A stretch of DNA of 64,000 nucleotides from Gammaproteobacteria bacterium (GTDB lineage Bacteria > Pseudomonadota > Gammaproteobacteria > JAABTG01): assembly GCA_034522055.1 (NCBI GenBank), contig JAXHLS010000002.1:2933549-2997548 (forward strand). Direction: 5' to 3'. Shown in pieces: positions 47,673 through 56,297 of the stretch (its first letter is position 1; each line of letters starts with the position of its first letter). Made by a program: the position numbers and the translations under genes. Under the pieces are notes generated by a model. The model saw only the letters and a program-made list of their open reading frames with translations, was not told the origin of the DNA and ran no database searches.

Positions 47673-48714
47673 CTGCGGCCTCTGCTTGTCGTGTCATTAC
47701 CGGGATTGGTGGGTGGACCCCGTGGCCACGCCCAGGGGTCCGGAAGGTCTATTAATCATACAAAACTAAATTTCGTAATAACAGGGTCTTCTCAATGTCG
47801 GGCTAAAGCCCGACCTACAAACACATCCCTACCGCCCGACCCACAGCCACACCCACCGCCTGTTCCTGTGGCACGGATGTAGGTCGGGATTCATCCCGAC
47901 ATTAAAGCCCGCCGCGCATACCACAGGCCGTGCCGGAACCACCCGCAGGCTGTCGGGCTGAAGCCCGACCTACAGCCCGACCTACAGCCCGACCAACAGC
48001 CCGACCCACAGCCCGACCCACAGCCACACCCACCGCCTGTTCCTGTGGCACGGATGTAGCGCCCGCAAACCGCCGAATTTCGTCGGCTGCCAAGAGCAGC
48101 CGACCTACGCCTCTGTCCTTCTCCCCAGGGAAAATGGGAAAGGGGAAATGGGAAATGGGAAATGGGAAAAGATTACCACCCGTGCGTCCGCTCTGCTGAC
48201 GCCGAAACGGTGGATCCGCTGCGCCTTTTCGAACTGCCACTCCTCCCTGACGTTCTCCCTTTTCGCGTCATTTCGCGTCTTTCGCGGTTACGCTTTTTGT
48301 AGATCGGGATTCATCCCGACATTCGGCTGTGGGGGGGCGAGACGGATGTCCATGTAGGCGACGACGGGCATTCGGGTAGACGACTGGATGTCTGGGTAAG
48401 AGGGTGGGTGTCTGGATAGGGGGATGGCGTAAGAATGGAGTATGGGATGTCTAACGAATTGCTTGCGACTTCGGAAACCTAAGGAAGAATCGGATTGTGA
48501 CTACCGTTGATACTGGAGTCGATACGGCGGGCTTGCTGCCGAGGCGCGTGGGGCATTTGGACCTATTGACCGGTGTAAAACAACCGCTTTTGGCTGATGG
48601 CTGGCCAGAGATGGTGTCGGTGGTGGTTTGTACGTGGCCTTTTGCGGGCACCTGGCATGGTTCTCGCCTGATCTTTTTTCCAACCGCCGCCGTGGTTCAA
48701 TCCATCGCACGAAC
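47673..48714. other. Long gene-free region with repeats
   Basis: No gene is supported over about 1 kb. REP-like palindromes lie at 47795-47819, 47879-47903, 47950-47974 and 48299-48323. The stretch 47966-48019 holds four or five tandem CCCGACC(T/C)ACAG units. An inverted copy of the ACGAAAGACGCGAAA repeat is near 48265. The part after 48330 is less repetitive, with short GGGTGTCTGGATAG-like near repeats, and weak ORFs there were not accepted. No B12 riboswitch or NikR operator was seen upstream of the nickel/cobalt genes. Confidence 0.6.
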
Positions 48715-50061
48715 ATGTCGACCCTTCTTTACATTCTGATCATTCCGTTACTGCTCGCCTTCATCGCGACGCCCGCGCGGGCGGATGGGGAGGCGATGCT
48801 GATTCCGGTGCAGGGTCCCATCGGTGCAGCCACCGGGGAGATGGTGGTGCGTGGCATCGGCGAGGCAAAGGAGCAGGGCGCCGCTCTGGTGATCCTGGAG
48901 ATGGATACCCCCGGGGGCCTCGATGCGGCCATGCGCCACATTGTCAAGGCCATCCTGGCCTCCGACGTGCCTGTGGTCACCTATGTGTCGCCCTCGGGGG
49001 CGCGGGCCGCCAGCGCCGGCACCTACATCCTCTACGCCAGCCACGTGGCCGCCATGGCCCCCGCTACCAATCTCGGGGCGGCCACGCCGGTGCAGGTAGG
49101 CGGGCTTCCCGGCCTCGGGGATAAGGCGCCCGCGGGCGACGGGGACGAGGCGGAAGGTGATGACGGGGAGCCCGCCGGCGACGCCATGGAGCGCAAGATG
49201 GTGAACGACGCGGTGGCCTATATCCGGGGCTTGGCGGAAATGAGAGACCGCAACGCCGAGTGGGCGGAGCGGGCCGTGCGGGAAGCGGTGAGCCTGTCGT
49301 CATCGGCCGCACTGGAGGACGGCGTCATCGATGTCGTGGCCGCCAGTATCCCCGAGCTGTTGGAGGCCATCCATGGCCGCACCGTCAATGTTGCCGGGAT
49401 GGAGCACGAGCTGGACACCGAGGGCCTCATGGTGAATCGCGTCGAACCGGGCTGGCGGACGCGGTTGCTGTCCATCATCGCCAATCCCAACGTCGCCTAC
49501 ATCCTGCTGATGATCGGCATCTACGGGCTCATCTTCGAACTCGCGAATCCGGGGGCGGTGATCCCCGGTACTATCGGTGCGGTAAGCCTGTTGCTGGCCC
49601 TCTATGCCCTCCAGGTGTTGTCGGTGGACTACGCGGGGGTGGCGCTGATCCTCCTCGGGGTGGCTCTCATGACGGCTGAAGCCTTCGCCCCGAGTTTCGG
49701 TGTCCTCGGGCTCGGCGGGCTGGCCGCCTTCCTGTTTGGCTCGGTGATCCTCATGGACGAGGAGGGTGTGGCCGTTTCCCTGCCCGTGGTCTTCATCACC
49801 GGCGCCCTAAGCGCGGGCCTCTCCATCTGGGTGGTGGGCCGCCTGGCGGCCCTGCGCCACAAGCCAGTCGTCAGTGGCACCGGGCGGCTGGTAGGGATGA
49901 GCGGCACCGCACGGGAGGACTTCGACCACAGTGGTCACGTGCGGGTGGAGGGTGAGGTCTGGCAGGCGGATACCCGCGCCCCGGTACACAAGGGCGACGC
50001 CGTGCGGGTCCTGTCCGTCGACGGCCTGCGCCTCGAGGTTGAACCGGAGAAACAGGAGTAA
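48715..50061 (+). CDS. nfeD: NfeD-family membrane serine protease
   Basis: A 448-residue protein. A signal/anchor helix ([17 protein letters not shown]) precedes a ClpP-like serine protease domain with the nucleophile region [16 protein letters not shown] and a lysine/asp-rich insertion ([15 protein letters not shown]). A four-helix membrane section ([19 protein letters not shown] onwards) and a C-terminal OB-fold domain ([20 protein letters not shown]) follow. NfeD proteases work with stomatin partners, and the next gene is a stomatin. The start at 48715 has no strong ribosome site. Confidence 0.92.
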
Positions 50062-50065
50062 CGCG

Positions 50066-50872
50066 ATGATGAACGAACTGATGCTGACCTATCTGCTGCC
50101 CATACTTCTGGTGGTGGCGTTTCTGGCCGCGGCCCTGCGCATCCTGCGCGAGTATGAGCGTGGCGTGGTGTTCTTCCTCGGCCGCTTCCAGGCGGTCAAG
50201 GGGCCGGGGCTCATCGTCCTCGTGCCCGGCATCCAGCAGATGGTGCGGGTGGACCTGCGTATCATCACCATGGACGTGCCGGAACAGGACCTCATCACCA
50301 AGGACAACGTCACGGTGCGGGTGAACGCCGTGCTGTACTTCAAGGTGGTGGATGCGGAGAAGGCGGTCATCCAGGTCGAGCAGTTCGAGATGGCGACGAG
50401 CCAACTGGCCCAGACTACCCTGCGCTCGGTGCTCGGCCAGCACGATCTGGACGAACTGCTGTCGGAGCGTGACCGCCTGAACAGCGATATCCAGGGGATC
50501 CTCGATGAACAGACCGACGCCTGGGGCATCAAGGTGACCAACGTCGAGATCAAGCACGTGGACCTCAACGAGAACATGATCCGCGCCATCGCCCGCCAGG
50601 CTGAGGCGGAGCGCAACCGGCGCGCGAAGGTGATCCATGCCGATGGCGAGTATCAGGCCTCGGAGCGCCTGCGCGATGCCGCCGGTGTCATCGCCGATCA
50701 CCCCGAGGCCCTGCAGTTGCGTTACCTCCAGACCCTGGCGGACATGTCCAGTGATCGGGCCACCACGGTGGTGTTTCCCTTGCCCATGGAGTGGTTGCAG
50801 TCCTTCAGCAGGACCCCGGCTGCGGGTGGCGCCGGCAAGAAGGGCGCACCGGAAGAGGAACAAGAGGCCTGA
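50066..50872 (+). CDS. Slipin/stomatin (SPFH/band 7) protein
   Basis: A 268-residue membrane protein. One N-terminal hairpin helix ([20 protein letters not shown]) is followed by an SPFH domain ([35 protein letters not shown]) and a coiled coil ([22 protein letters not shown] split by the end of the domain). It is the standard partner and substrate of NfeD. It starts 5 bp after nfeD with AGGAG before the ATG. Confidence 0.93.
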
Positions 50873-51183: not shown

Positions 51184-52536
51184 ATGACGCCGGCCGTGAA
51201 GGCGGCCGAGGTGGGGCGTATCACTTTCCGTCTCCACGAGTATGCCCATGACCCCTCGGCTGCGGCGTATGGCCTCGAGGCCGCGGAGAAGTTGGGTGTG
51301 GACCCCCAGCGGGTTTTCAAGACCCTGGTGGTGGAACTGGACGGCCGGACCCTGGCGGTGGGGCTGGTGCCGGTCTCGGGGATGCTGGGCATGAAGGCCA
51401 TCGCCCGGGCCGCCGGTGCCCGCAAGGCGGCCATGGCCGATGAGGCGGAGGTGCGGCGGGCCACGGGTTACGTGCTGGGCGGCGTGAGCCCCCTGGGACA
51501 GAAGAAGCGCCTGCGCACCTTCATCGACCGCTCCGCCCAGGGCTTTTCCACCATCCATGTCAGCGCCGGCCGCCGGGGCCTGGAGTTGGAGATCGCCCCC
51601 CAGGATCTGGTGCGCCTCACGGGGGGTGTGTTCGCGGCGCTGGTGCAACCGGCCCTGGGGGGGCAACCCGGCGCGGACGATACCCGACCCGCCGCCCAAT
51701 GGGGCGAGGCCTCGCCGCTCCACGACCCATGGATCCTGGCCCACTTCGAGGCCCGGCCCACGGATGTCCTCATCACCACCGCCCCCAAGGCGGGTACCAC
51801 CTGGATGCAGCAGATCCTCCATCAGTTGCGCAGCGGTGGCGACCCGGACTTCGCGGAGATCGACGGCGTGGTGCCGTGGCTGGAACGCCAGCGCCCCGGC
51901 CGGGACTGGCGGCAGATCCTTGCGGACTTCGAGGCCCTGCCGGACCCCCGGGTGTTCAAGACCCATTGCACCTGGGAACAGACTCCGGGCCGCGACACGG
52001 CCCGCATCATCCTCACCCTGCGGGACCCGCGGGACTGCTGCGTGAGCTTCTATCATCACCTGATGGACATGACCGACGCGGCCCTCTCCCGCACCGGACT
52101 CACGCGCCCCGCCACCATGGATGAACACGTGTCGGCCTGGCTGGCTTTCGGGGCGTGGTTCCGCAACGTCGCGAGTTGGTGGCCGCGGCGGGAGCGGGAC
52201 AATGTGCTCTTGTTGCCCTATGCCGATCTCAAGGCCGACCTGCCCGCTGCCTTGGGACAGATCCTGGATTTCCTCGGTTGGACGACCACGCAGGCGGAGC
52301 GGGCCCGGGTCCTGGAGTACGCCTCCTTTTCGTGGATGAAGGCCAACGCCCACCGCTTCGTGGGCCAGGGGGAGGACGGCGAGCCCGTCTTCCGTCCCGG
52401 CGGTTTCATCCGCAAGGGCCGGACCGGGGACTACCGGACCCATCTGTCTCCGGCGCAGGAGGCCCGCATACTGGAACGTTGCCGGGCGGAACTGCCCGCC
52501 GCCTGTTTGGCCTACCTGGGCCTGGACGCCGACTAA
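51184..52536 (+). CDS. Fusion of YbaK-type Cys-tRNA(Pro) deacylase and sulfotransferase
   Basis: One uninterrupted ORF of 450 residues joins two enzymes. Residues 1-155 are a YbaK/EbsC editing domain, with K46 in RVFKTLVVEL and the conserved GGVSPLG at 99-105. YbaK hydrolyses mischarged Cys-tRNA(Pro). Residues ~183-450 are a cytosolic-type sulfotransferase. It has the PAPS-binding loop TAPKAGTTW at 199-207, the second PAPS motif LTLRDPRDCCVSFYHH and a C-terminal KGRTGDYRTHLS that fits the family's RKG..GDW motif. The start at 51184 is the ATG after TATGCGCC. The 3' end overlaps the convergent SDR gene by 4 bp. The acceptor substrate is unknown. Confidence 0.9.
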   Translation: MTPAVKAAEVGRITFRLHEYAHDPSAAAYGLEAAEKLGVDPQRVFKTLVVELDGRTLAVGLVPVSGMLGMKAIARAAGARKAAMADEAEVRRATGYVLGGVSPLGQKKRLRTFIDRSAQGFSTIHVSAGRRGLELEIAPQDLVRLTGGVFAALVQPALGGQPGADDTRPAAQWGEASPLHDPWILAHFEARPTDVLITTAPKAGTTWMQQILHQLRSGGDPDFAEIDGVVPWLERQRPGRDWRQILADFEALPDPRVFKTHCTWEQTPGRDTARIILTLRDPRDCCVSFYHHLMDMTDAALSRTGLTRPATMDEHVSAWLAFGAWFRNVASWWPRRERDNVLLLPYADLKADLPAALGQILDFLGWTTTQAERARVLEYASFSWMKANAHRFVGQGEDGEPVFRPGGFIRKGRTGDYRTHLSPAQEARILERCRAELPAACLAYLGLDAD

Positions 52537-53240
52537 GCGCCGGCTGTACGCAGCGTTCCCATGCCACCATCCATGGCCACGATCTGACCGGTCATCCAAC
52601 TGGCGTCGTCGGAGAGTAGGAAGGCGATGAGGGCGGCTACCTTGTCCGCATCGCCGATGCTCCGGGCGGGGTGGCGGGCGGCCATGTCCTCACGCTTGCG
52701 CGCGCTGGACAGCAAGGGAGCGGCCAGGGGGGTGTCGACGAGGGAGGGGGCGACGGCATTGACGCGAATGGCGGGCGCGAGTTCCGCGGCGAGGGCCCGG
52801 GTGAGGCCCTCCACCGCTCCTTTCGCGCCCGAGATGGAGGCGTGATAGGGCATGCCCGTGGCAACGGCCACGCTGCTCATGGTCACCACCGCGGCGCTGC
52901 CCGCTTGCTTGAGATTCTTCAGATAGTGCTGGATCACCCGCACCGCACCGAGATAATTCACCTGCAGATCCGCCATGATCTGCTCGTTATTCAGCCGACT
53001 GAACGGCTTCAGGGTGATGGAGCCCGGCAGGTAGACCAGGCCGTCCAGCGGGCCATCCCAGTCCGGCAGGGCCGAAGAAAAATCGGTGACATCGCATGAC
53101 CAGTGGGCCGCCACGGCCGCCGTTGCGGGCCCCTCTTTACGGCGACTCATGCTGATCACCCCATGGCCTTCATCGCTGAGGCGACAAGCCAGCCCGAGGC
53201 CGATACCGGAGGTGGCCCCGACGATGAGGAAATTCTTCAT
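52533..53240 (-). CDS. Short-chain dehydrogenase/reductase
   Basis: A 235-residue classical SDR. The nucleotide-binding motif is GATSGIGLG near the N terminus. NYLGAV is present, the catalytic serine lies in VTMSSVAV, and YHASISGAKGA supplies the Tyr-x-x-x-Lys region as YHASISGAK. That spacing departs from the usual YxxxK, since the lysine is eight residues after the tyrosine. The C-terminal DGGMGTL tail is standard. The substrate is unknown. A 63-residue exported ORF overlaps its start by 4 bp. Confidence 0.88.
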   Translation of the reverse strand: MKNFLIVGATSGIGLGLACRLSDEGHGVISMSRRKEGPATAAVAAHWSCDVTDFSSALPDWDGPLDGLVYLPGSITLKPFSRLNNEQIMADLQVNYLGAVRVIQHYLKNLKQAGSAAVVTMSSVAVATGMPYHASISGAKGAVEGLTRALAAELAPAIRVNAVAPSLVDTPLAAPLLSSARKREDMAARHPARSIGDADKVAALIAFLLSDDASWMTGQIVAMDGGMGTLRTAGA

Positions 53241-53428
53241 CTGCGCGGTGCCTCCATGATGTCCCCGGCAGACGGGGCCGATAAATGTTCCTGTCCACCG
53301 GACTGAGGGGAGACGAAGGGGAGGGCGAGGATGCTCGCGTCAGCGCCGGCGGCCAGGAAACCCAGTAACAGCACGAGGCCGGACAGATTCCGGCCCCGTT
53401 TCGCTGCGATATTCGATTGCCTGTTCAT
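53237..53428 (-). CDS. Small hypothetical exported peptide
   Basis: A 63-residue ORF with a hydrophobic segment (LSGLVLLLGFLAAGADASIL) that looks like a signal peptide or anchor. It overlaps the SDR start by 4 bp (ATGA), which favours real translation upstream of the SDR. I do not recognise a family. Confidence 0.45.
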   Translation of the reverse strand: MNRQSNIAAKRGRNLSGLVLLLGFLAAGADASILALPFVSPQSGGQEHLSAPSAGDIMEAPRR

Positions 53429-53518
53429 GGGGAGCAGTACGCCGCACCGGCGGCCTCGGATCATGGGGCGTGAAGGGTGTGGCGAACGCTATCGCGAAGG
53501 AGCTGAACGGGCTCGGGT

Positions 53519-54043
53519 TCAGCTGCGGGCCCGCCGGGGTTCCACGATGACGGGGTCCCCCACCCTGATGGAGCCGTCCTCCACCACCGTGAGGCCGACG
53601 CCGCCGCGGTGGGCGAGGGCCTTCATGGTACCGGGGCCGAGCATGCGCTCGAGATAACCGCAGGGCGGACGCAGGCGGTGGAAGCGCAGCCGGGTCTCGC
53701 CGATGCGGATATGACAGTCCCGGAAGGCCGCCACGGGTATGCCGGCCACCACCAGGTTTCGTCGATGCTCGCCGCGGGAAAAGCACAGGCCGGATTGTTG
53801 CTCGGCCGCCTGCAGGTCCTCCAGGGTCACCAGGGTCACCTGGCAGCCGTCGGTGGCCCGCCAATGTCCAGCGCCATTGGCATAGCGGTCACGGGCCAGG
53901 CCCTGGCCGGCCACGGCATGCACGGCGTCCGCGGCCTCCATGGGTGCGCCGGCGACGGGAGCGAGGTAGATGGCCTTCAGAGTGCCGCGGAGGTCTTCCG
54001 GCGACCAATCCTGCAACCATGAGAACAGACGTCCTTTCACCAT
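53519..54043 (-). CDS. MOSC-domain protein
   Basis: A 174-residue MOSC protein. These domains are predicted to carry sulfur for molybdenum-cofactor-linked reactions. Landmarks are the cysteine-containing ATDGCQVTLVTLEDLQAAEQ, RGEHRRNLVVAGIPV, the conserved LRPPCGYLERMLGPGTMKAL with its cysteine, and GGVGLTVVEDGSIRVGD. It is a stand-alone MOSC like YiiM. The start at 54043 (ATGGTGAAAGG) is reasonable. Neighbours do not reveal a partner enzyme. Confidence 0.88.
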   Translation of the reverse strand: MVKGRLFSWLQDWSPEDLRGTLKAIYLAPVAGAPMEAADAVHAVAGQGLARDRYANGAGHWRATDGCQVTLVTLEDLQAAEQQSGLCFSRGEHRRNLVVAGIPVAAFRDCHIRIGETRLRFHRLRPPCGYLERMLGPGTMKALAHRGGVGLTVVEDGSIRVGDPVIVEPRRARS

Positions 54044-54063
54044 TTAATCGTTGCGAGTCGCTC

Positions 54064-54456
54064 TCAACCCCACTCACCACGGCCGTTGAGATGTTCGATG
54101 ACCCGTTGCATGCCCTCGAGACCGAGGCTCAACATGAGATCCAGCGGCGGCCTGCCGTTGAAATAGGGATGGGGGGTACTGACCCAGTAGTTGGCCATCT
54201 CCGTGCTCTGGGGGTGCATCTGTTGGAGGGCCTTATGGATAGTGAGGACGGCGCTCATATGCCTATGCAGGCGGGCCTCTTCCGCCTCGTCTAGGCCATC
54301 GCCGAAGCCCGCCAGCAGATGCCGGGGATCATCGTCAGCCGTTCCCATCAGCCGCGCCTGGCCCGCGGGCGGCACGCCCCAGTCCCGCATGACCTGCAAA
54401 ACAACGCGGGCCATATCCCGGCGTCGCTGGACATCCAAGTCGCTGATCGTGCCCAT
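54064..54456 (-). CDS. Xre/MbcA/ParS-type antitoxin (DUF2384), orphan
   Basis: A 130-residue protein with an N-terminal helical DNA-binding-like part and the C-terminal toxin-binding domain seen in MbcA/ParS antitoxins (YWVSTPHPYFNGRPPLDLML and LEGMQRVIEHLNGRG). The usual RES-type toxin gene should follow downstream, but the next gene in that direction is the MOSC protein. It is an orphan antitoxin or a regulator. Confidence 0.8.
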   Translation of the reverse strand: MGTISDLDVQRRRDMARVVLQVMRDWGVPPAGQARLMGTADDDPRHLLAGFGDGLDEAEEARLHRHMSAVLTIHKALQQMHPQSTEMANYWVSTPHPYFNGRPPLDLMLSLGLEGMQRVIEHLNGRGEWG

Positions 54457-54646
54457 GGGCGATTAAACCTGTCTGTGCTCAAAAACTGCAATCAAAGGCG
54501 AATATCCAGACTCTACACATCGGCTGGAGCTTGATCCATGGGGGACGCGGTGGCGTAGGGCACATGTCGACACGTCCCTGCTTACTGTTCCCTGCATCCC
54601 AGCATGGTGGGCAAGGTGATTGTGGAGGAGTAGTCCATACTCCACG

Positions 54647-54684
54647 GAGCCGCCGGCCCGCCCCGCGGGGTGGGCCGGCGGCTC
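54647..54684 (-). terminator. GC-rich hairpin after the ceramidase-family gene
   Basis: GAGCCGCCGGCCC pairs perfectly with GGGCCGGCGGCTC across a 12-base loop. It overlaps the stop region of the minus-strand ceramidase-family gene. There is no T tract, so termination strength is uncertain. Confidence 0.6.
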
Positions 54685-55363
54685 AGGGACAAGCGACCCC
54701 GGGTCGTGAACGCTGGTTATGCGCCGGGCCTGGCGGCCATGTCATGAGAAAGCGGGTGGTGAGATAGAGAACCAAACCGTTCAGCAGGTGCCACAGAAAA
54801 TGGGTGCCCACGGGGAGGGTGGCGCAGACGGCGTCGTCGATGCTGCGGAAGACCAGGGAGAGGGTGAATGCCAGCACCGCGATCGCCAACGGCCCGGCGC
54901 GGGCCGGTGCCAGGGTGCGGACGTGGATGGCCATGATCACCAGGGCCAGCCAGGCGGGCAGATAGAACACCGAGCCGTTGAGGAAATCCGCCGGCAGGGC
55001 CGCCTGCACACCCGCGTTGGCCCCGTGGAACGCCAGGAACAGCAGGGTCCCCGTGCCGAGGTCCGTGCGGGCCACCCGGACCAGATAGCTCACCAGAAAG
55101 ACGTTGATATAGAGGGTAATGGGTACCACGTCCATCATGGCGGACCAGGGCGTCGCCAGGGTATGCCACAGGAAACTGCCCACGCCGATGGAGAACACCA
55201 GGAAGATCAGCACCACCACCTCCCACGCCATGGGCGGCGGAGGCCGGCGTAGCGCTAGGCACAGCAGGGCGATGCCCGCGGCGATGAAGGCGAGGTTGGT
55301 GAGGGCGTTCACGGGCTCGGCCCAGAAGGCGTCCAGGGAGCGCTCGCAGTATTCCATGGTCAT
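54683..55363 (-). CDS. Ceramidase-family membrane protein
   Basis: A 226-residue protein with seven hydrophobic helices and the conserved residues of the alkaline ceramidase (CREST) superfamily: EPVNALTNLAFI, SFLWHTLATPWSAMMDVVPI and HFLWHLLNGLVLYL. These contain the histidines and aspartate that bind zinc. Bacterial members have unknown substrates. The start is ATG at 55363, or 55357. It diverges from the peroxiredoxin gene. Confidence 0.88.
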   Translation of the reverse strand: MTMEYCERSLDAFWAEPVNALTNLAFIAAGIALLCLALRRPPPPMAWEVVVLIFLVFSIGVGSFLWHTLATPWSAMMDVVPITLYINVFLVSYLVRVARTDLGTGTLLFLAFHGANAGVQAALPADFLNGSVFYLPAWLALVIMAIHVRTLAPARAGPLAIAVLAFTLSLVFRSIDDAVCATLPVGTHFLWHLLNGLVLYLTTRFLMTWPPGPAHNQRSRPGVACP

Positions 55364-55553: not shown

Positions 55554-56297
55554 ATGGATCCATTGAAAGAAGGTCAACGCGTACCCGATGCGGTGTTCCA
55601 CACCCGCCAGGGTCACGAATGGGTGGACGTGTCCACCGATGATATATTCAAGGGCAGGACGGTGGCGGTGTTCTCCCTGCCCGGGGCCTTCACACCCACC
55701 TGCTCGTCGTCCCACGTGCCGCGCTTCCACCAGCTGGCGCCCGCCTTCAAGGCCGCGGGGGTGGACGAGATCGTCTGCATCTCCGTCAACGACGCCTTCG
55801 TCATGAACGAGTGGGCGGCGGATCAGAAGGCGGACAACATCACCTTCCTCCCGGACGGCAACGGCGAGTTCACGGCGGGCATGGGATTGCTGGTGGACAA
55901 GGACGACCTGGGCTTCGGCAAGCGCTCCTGGCGCTACTCCATGCTGGTGAAGGACGGCGTCATCGACAAGATGTTCGTGGAGCCGGAACAGCCGGGCGAC
56001 CCCTTCGAGGTGTCCGATGCCGACACCATGCTGGCCTACATCGCCCCGGAGGCGGTCAAGCCCCTGGATGTCACGGTGTTCACCCGCAAGGGTTGCCCCT
56101 TCTGCGCCAAGGCCAAGGGCATGCTGCACGACGAGGGCATCGAGTTCGAGGAACTGGAACTCAACCGTGACTATACTGACCGTACCCTGCGGGCGGTGAC
56201 GGGGGGCGACATGGTGCCCCAGGTGTTCATCAACGGCGAACGGGTCGGAGGTTCCACCGATCTGGAGGCCTGGCTGGATGCCCGCGACGCCGCCTGA
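55554..56297 (+). CDS. Peroxiredoxin-glutaredoxin hybrid (Prx5/Grx)
   Basis: A 247-residue fusion that reduces hydroperoxides using glutathione. Residues 1-165 form a Prx5 domain with the peroxidatic cysteine C50 in GAFTPTC. Residues 172-245 form a glutaredoxin with CPFC (C181/C184) and the cis-proline motif VPQVFI. Such hybrids are typical of gammaproteobacteria and are often OxyR-regulated, which fits the upstream box. The start follows GGAGG at good spacing. Confidence 0.96.

What the first reader, a model, noticed from the sequence alone, without database searches (positions are those of the whole stretch)
51184..52536. One protein joins a YbaK tRNA-editing domain to a sulfotransferase
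The 450-residue ORF is continuous across the junction and both halves keep key residues: K46 and GGVSPLG for the Cys-tRNA(Pro) deacylase, and TAPKAGTTW and the LTLRDPRD loop for the PAPS-dependent sulfotransferase. I know of no established link between clearing mischarged Cys-tRNA and sulfate transfer. In a sulfur oxidiser the fusion might couple cysteine or thiol status to sulfation. Alternatively it may be a recent joining of two neighbouring genes.
Basis: partly seen in the sequence, partly recalled or inferred. Interest (0 to 1): 0.75.

Follow-up and report, generated by a model that had tools for sequence, protein, structure and literature searches.

The report
Accidental YbaK–sulfotransferase fusion in one species
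One bacterial species makes a tRNA proofreading enzyme and a sulfate-transferring enzyme as a single protein, because a piece of DNA replaced the stop signal at the end of the proofreading gene; both halves look intact, but nothing suggests they work together, so it is a real curiosity rather than a new system.

Summary
The 450-residue frame at 51184-52536 is real. It holds a complete YbaK/EbsC Cys-tRNA(Pro) deacylase (1-157), a 10-15 residue linker, and a complete SULT-type sulfotransferase (about 170-448), with key motifs kept in both halves. The sister species (G001) carries nfeD-slipin-ybaK in the same order, but its ybaK ends in TAG exactly where the window reads through. DNA homology to the sister stops at 51654, the last sense codon of the ancestral ybaK. 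It resumes at 54583, inside the 3' end of a cupredoxin gene of which only 51 bp remain. So 51655-54582 (sulfotransferase, SDR, MOSC, orphan antitoxin) is a replacement segment whose left joint removed the stop. The sulfotransferase lost its own start codon, so it can be made whole only as a fusion or from rare GTG codons inside ybaK. Its nearest kin are single-domain Chromatiaceae enzymes. I found no other fusion in 767 sampled genomes or among 31 relatives, and no genome but this one had both genes at the cut-offs used. That argues against a conserved coupling of Cys-tRNA editing to sulfation. Verdict: a genuine, novel, single-species gene fusion, probably two independent activities on one chain; modest interest.

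The parts
51184..51654 (+). YbaK/EbsC Cys-tRNA(Pro) deacylase domain (residues 1-157), the whole ancestral ybaK coding sequence minus its stop
   Evidence: TIGR00011 168.7 bits, above cut-off; 2dxa_A E. coli YbaK 4e-46; DNA homology to the sister species' ybaK ends at 51654, where the sister has TAG
51655..51687 (+). Junction and linker (codons 158-168): CTG GGG GGG CAA... in place of the ancestral stop; the joint lies in this interval
   Evidence: Alignment with G001; matching 'RPAA(H/Q)WGE' begins at about codon 168 in the Thiococcus sulfotransferase; pLDDT under 50 over 143-166 (YbaK half not reliable)
51688..52536 (+). SULT-type PAPS-dependent sulfotransferase domain (about residues 169-450), without its own start codon
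   Evidence: PF00685 9.8e-45; fold match SULT2A1 3f3y Z 27.5, rmsd 2.8, 264 aligned; 70-73% identity to Chromatiaceae homologues; no in-frame start between codons 158 and 207
51655..54582 (.). Segment with no counterpart in the assembly of the sister species: sulfotransferase, SDR, MOSC protein, orphan Xre/MbcA-type antitoxin
   Evidence: blastn against G001 contigs: homology ends 51654, resumes 54583; Pfam of its genes; none found in G001
54583..54633 (+). 51-bp 3' remnant of a cupredoxin gene (YCSLHPSMVGKVIVEE*), right edge of the replacement
   Evidence: 84% DNA match to the G001 cupredoxin-like tail; no other convincing copy of it in the own genome
48718..50061 (+). NfeD family protein, left syntenic flank
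   Evidence: PF01957/PF24961; also upstream of ybaK in G001
50057..50872 (+). Slipin/SPFH (Band 7) protein, left syntenic flank
   Evidence: PF01145; 91% aa identity in G001 next to ybaK

Best explanation
A species-specific, accidental gene fusion. A DNA replacement downstream of ybaK joined the last sense codon of ybaK in frame to a sulfotransferase of Chromatiaceae type that had lost its own start. The single polypeptide probably folds into two independent modules on a flexible linker. The YbaK module clears Cys-tRNA(Pro), by family knowledge as a ternary complex with ProRS. The sulfotransferase module moves a sulfuryl group from PAPS to an unknown small acceptor, with H261 as general base and K202 and the RDPRD/RKG loops binding PAPS. 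The practical effect is that ybaK's start drives the sulfotransferase. Shown: the open frame, intact motifs, stop in the sister, boundaries of the replaced segment, missing sulfotransferase start. Inferred: both activities, independence of the modules, horizontal origin.
For: Single open frame with both full domains. TAG at the same codon in the sister species' ybaK at the same locus. Homology break at 51654 and 54583, with a truncated cupredoxin at the right edge and no convincing copy elsewhere in the genome. No close relative of the sulfotransferase in the four other genomes of its family and order. The sulfotransferase groups with Thiococcus, Halochromatium and Rhabdochromatium at 100/99 support. 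It keeps all but one of 72 columns that are invariant in 20 single-domain homologues. No other fusion in 369 class and 398 phylum genomes, 31 homologous loci, or plasmid, phage and viral collections. No conserved neighbour genes of the sulfotransferase across about 50 loci.
Against: In G001 the stretch between ybaK and the cupredoxin falls in a contig gap, so its ancestral content is not seen. Base composition does not mark the segment as foreign (GC3 0.77-0.87, against 0.83-0.88 for flanking genes). No sign of a transposase or of flanking repeats. Activity of either half is not shown.
Confidence: 0.8

Rival explanations
1. A selected bifunctional enzyme in which Cys-tRNA editing and sulfation are functionally coupled, for example the YbaK module senses cysteine or thiol state, or delivers the sulfotransferase to ProRS/tRNA so that it sulfates a tRNA- or translation-linked target.
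For: Both halves keep their key residues, and the frame is intact although the sulfotransferase has no start of its own.
Against: The architecture was found in one genome only. Of 369 class genomes, 48 have YbaK and 19 the sulfotransferase, sharing only this one. Of 21 sulfotransferase genomes only one has even a distant YbaK-like hit, at the cut-off used. Intact motifs are also expected if the joining is recent.
Confidence: 0.06
2. Translation mostly yields separate products: the sulfotransferase is also started at GTG codons inside ybaK (143, 149 or 154), or the linker is cut, so the fusion is largely formal.
For: In-frame GTG codons exist at 143, 149 and 154, with a G-rich stretch just before 149; GC-rich linker with no predicted order.
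Against: No well-spaced Shine-Dalgarno sequence at these codons. No stop ends YbaK, so YbaK without the sulfotransferase could arise only by cleavage.
Confidence: 0.15
3. Assembly or sequencing artefact: two separate genes joined by an error.
For: A run of seven G lies at the junction, a place where long-read assemblies make indels; no reads were available.
Against: An indel would not give two intact genes (no stop in the other frames until 52043 and 52122, no sulfotransferase start). Both flanks are syntenic with the sister species, and the contig is 3.7 Mb.
Confidence: 0.05

Closest known systems
YbaK/EbsC Cys-tRNA(Pro) deacylase (TIGR00011; E. coli YbaK 2dxa, H. influenzae 1dbx)
   Same: Full length, above the curated cut-off, K46 and GGxSPLG kept; genomic place shared with the sister species' ybaK
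   Different: No stop; the C-terminus continues into a sulfotransferase. [quoted passage not shown]
Cytosolic SULT-type sulfotransferases (PF00685; SULT1C2 3bfx, SULT2A1 3f3y) and the single-domain gammaproteobacterial family (Thiococcus, Halochromatium, Rhabdochromatium)
   Same: Whole domain, fold Z 27.5 to SULT2A1, 70-73% identity to the Chromatiaceae proteins, same PAPS motifs
   Different: Those have their own short N-terminal leader and start codon; here the leader is cut and replaced by YbaK
Editing domains fused to ProRS (INS domain; YbaK-like domains of protozoan ProRS, PMC3532385)
   Same: A YbaK-type domain as part of a larger polypeptide
   Different: There the partner is the synthetase whose product is edited, and the fusion is widespread; here the partner is unrelated and the fusion is in one species

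Membership tests
YbaK Cys-tRNA(Pro) deacylase (TIGR00011) | Profile match above the curated cut-off over the whole model | tested here: met
   168.7 bits against 153.25, model 1-151 of 152
YbaK Cys-tRNA(Pro) deacylase (TIGR00011) | Active-site lysine K46 and GGxSPLG loop | tested here: met
   K46 aligned with K46 of 1dbu/1dbx, GGVSPLG at 99; K46 reported critical by mutagenesis, as cited in PMC3532385
YbaK Cys-tRNA(Pro) deacylase (TIGR00011) | Single-domain protein | tested here: not met
   ORF continues 293 residues into a sulfotransferase; the domain is a YbaK, the protein is a variant architecture
YbaK Cys-tRNA(Pro) deacylase (TIGR00011) | Deacylates Cys-tRNA(Pro); binds ProRS | not testable with these tools
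   needs a biochemical assay
PAPS-dependent sulfotransferase (PF00685, SULT type) | Profile match over the domain | tested here: met
   9.8e-45, model 1-250 of 255
PAPS-dependent sulfotransferase (PF00685, SULT type) | 5'-PSB loop (PKxGTTW), catalytic His, 3'-PSB (RDPRD), RKGxxGD motif | tested here: met
   K202, H261, R280-D284, R410-K411-G412 located and aligned to 3bfx; K202, H261, R280, R410 and G412 invariant in 21 homologues
PAPS-dependent sulfotransferase (PF00685, SULT type) | SULT fold | tested here: met
   Model pLDDT mostly above 90 in this half; Z 27.5 to 3f3y
PAPS-dependent sulfotransferase (PF00685, SULT type) | Transfers sulfate from PAPS to an acceptor | not testable with these tools
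   acceptor unknown; no conserved neighbourhood to hint at it
Conserved YbaK-sulfotransferase fusion family | Same architecture in other genomes | tested here: not met
   None in 31 homologous loci, 369 class genomes, 398 phylum genomes, or plasmids, phages and viral contigs

The most novel reading that the evidence does not exclude
A truly coupled enzyme: ProRS/tRNA(Pro) recruitment through the YbaK module places or regulates the sulfotransferase, linking mischarged cysteine to sulfation of a specific target.
Probability: 0.04. Interest if true: 0.8.

Novelty: new variant of a known kind. Interest (0 to 1): 0.3.

Why it matters
It is a clean example of how a new two-domain protein arises: a replacement whose joint falls on a stop codon, with a sister species that keeps the earlier gene end. 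It also gives an exception to the published statement that stand-alone INS-superfamily editing proteins are single-domain (PMC11295145). It warns against reading a functional link from one fusion (the 'Rosetta stone' argument). If the two activities were coupled it would matter much more, but the evidence points away from that.

Tried and rejected
Frameshift or indel artefact: rejected from the stop pattern in the other frames and the lack of a sulfotransferase start. Old neighbouring genes joined by simple stop loss: rejected, since no relative has the two side by side. Long open frames of other YbaK hits as possible fusions: five loci with open frames of 282-658 aa (G216, G174, G148, G265, G088) and G370 (358 aa) were fetched and hold no sulfotransferase; longer frames in the phylum run (G633, G764, G464, G757) matched the query only within 1-182 and were not fetched. 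Foreign composition: not seen. Flanking direct repeats or a transposase marking the insertion: none convincing. Overlap of the two G001 contig ends to show the empty site: no overlap found. Structure of the YbaK half: low confidence because the alignment holds only sulfotransferases. It was not searched further; the sequence match to 2dxa was used instead. Conserved neighbours of the sulfotransferase: none. A defence role: no PADLOC match. Papers holding both YbaK and sulfotransferase: one, on protein CoAlation, judged by its title and abstract and not read.

Full report
OBSERVATION. The frame 51184-52536 (+) is open for 450 codons. Residues 2-153 match TIGR00011 (Cys-tRNA(Pro) deacylase) at 168.7 bits, above its cut-off, and E. 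coli YbaK 2dxa at 4e-46. Residues 192-436 match PF00685 at 9.8e-45 and human SULT1C2 at about 1e-33. K46, GGVSPLG (99), TAPKAGTTW (199), H261 in KTHCTW, RDPRD (280) and RKGRTGD (410) are all present.

IS IT AN ARTEFACT? There is a run of seven G at the junction. Yet in the other two forward frames the next stops lie at 52043 and 52122, and between codons 158 and 207 of the main frame there is no ATG, GTG or TTG. A missing or extra base could therefore not give back two intact genes. The window lies in a 3.7-Mb contig, and the DNA on both sides of the joined segment is syntenic with another species of the genus. An artefact is unlikely, though no reads were seen.

HOW IT AROSE. In the sister species G001 the order is nfeD, slipin, ybaK, and ybaK ends ...CTG CAG CCG GCC TAG. 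The window reads ...GTG CAA CCG GCC CTG GGG GGG. By blastn, homology between the two species stops at 51654, the last sense codon, and resumes at 54583. At the right edge G001 has the 3' end of a cupredoxin-like gene (...YCALHPAMVGKVVVEE*; named from the sequence motif, since the 49-residue fragment had no Pfam match). The window keeps only its last 51 bp (YCSLHPSMVGKVIVEE*), and there is no other convincing match in the own genome. So 51655-54582 replaced older DNA in this lineage. It carries the sulfotransferase, an SDR, a MOSC protein and an Xre/MbcA-type antitoxin, none of which was found in G001. A caution: in G001 the stretch between ybaK and the cupredoxin lies in a contig gap, so what stood there is unknown.

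ORIGIN OF THE SULFOTRANSFERASE. No close relative exists in the four other genomes of the family, which are also all that the order holds here (G002 has only distant sulfotransferases at about 30%). Its nearest relatives are single-domain proteins of Thiococcus, Halochromatium and Rhabdochromatium (70-73%), with which it groups at 100/99 support. These start roughly 20-35 residues before the conserved WGE motif. In the window that leader is cut and its start lost. Horizontal transfer is likely but not proved; GC3 is like that of the neighbours.

IS THE FUSION A CONSERVED DEVICE? None of 31 homologous loci in named genomes, 369 class genomes or 398 phylum genomes shows it. No place in plasmid or phage records covers 80% of the query, and viral contigs gave nothing. 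In the class sample 48 genomes have YbaK and 19 the sulfotransferase, with this genome as the only one in both lists; about two would be expected by chance, so this shows no positive link rather than exclusion. Of 21 genomes with the sulfotransferase one has a distant YbaK-like hit. The sulfotransferase has no conserved neighbours. These facts speak against a functional tie.

HOW IT PROBABLY WORKS. The sulfotransferase half is predicted with pLDDT mostly above 90 and fits SULT2A1 at Z 27.5, rmsd 2.8, 264 aligned. The YbaK half was not well modelled, since the alignment held no YbaK. The sulfotransferase half keeps all but one of 72 columns invariant in 20 homologues (R345P). dN/dS is about 0.18 for ybaK against G001 and 0.23 for the sulfotransferase against Thiococcus, but most of that history may precede the joining. 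The most likely picture is two active modules on a flexible linker, doing their usual jobs, with sulfotransferase synthesis now tied to ybaK's start. YbaK acts with ProRS and tRNA(Pro) (PMC6344894), and whether the added 290 residues disturb that complex is open.

COMPARISON AND VERDICT. [quoted passage not shown] This protein is an exception and, within what was searched, a new architecture. It is a new variant of a known kind: a one-species fusion, interesting as an example of gene birth by stop loss and not as a new pathway.

Noticed in passing
54583-54633: 51-bp remnant of a cupredoxin-like gene whose longer 3' part is present at the start of a contig of the sister species (L078:1-149); the rest was not found in this genome.
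   Followed up: yes
54064-54456: Xre/MbcA/ParS-type antitoxin C-terminal domain protein with no obvious toxin partner beside it, inside the replacement segment.
   Followed up: no
47962-48169: Short tandem repeats (12-bp AGCCCGACCCAC x6.3 and 7-bp AAATGGG x5.4) upstream of the nfeD gene.
   Followed up: no
55554-56297: Peroxiredoxin-glutaredoxin hybrid protein (Redoxin plus Glutaredoxin), a known kind of fusion, 3 kb from the finding.
   Followed up: no
54683-55363: Ceramidase-family (PF05875) protein next to the right edge of the replaced segment.
   Followed up: no
L035:2308-3150: A record named Halobacteria archaeon carries a sulfotransferase 62% identical to this one; possibly a mis-binned contig or a transfer.
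   Followed up: no
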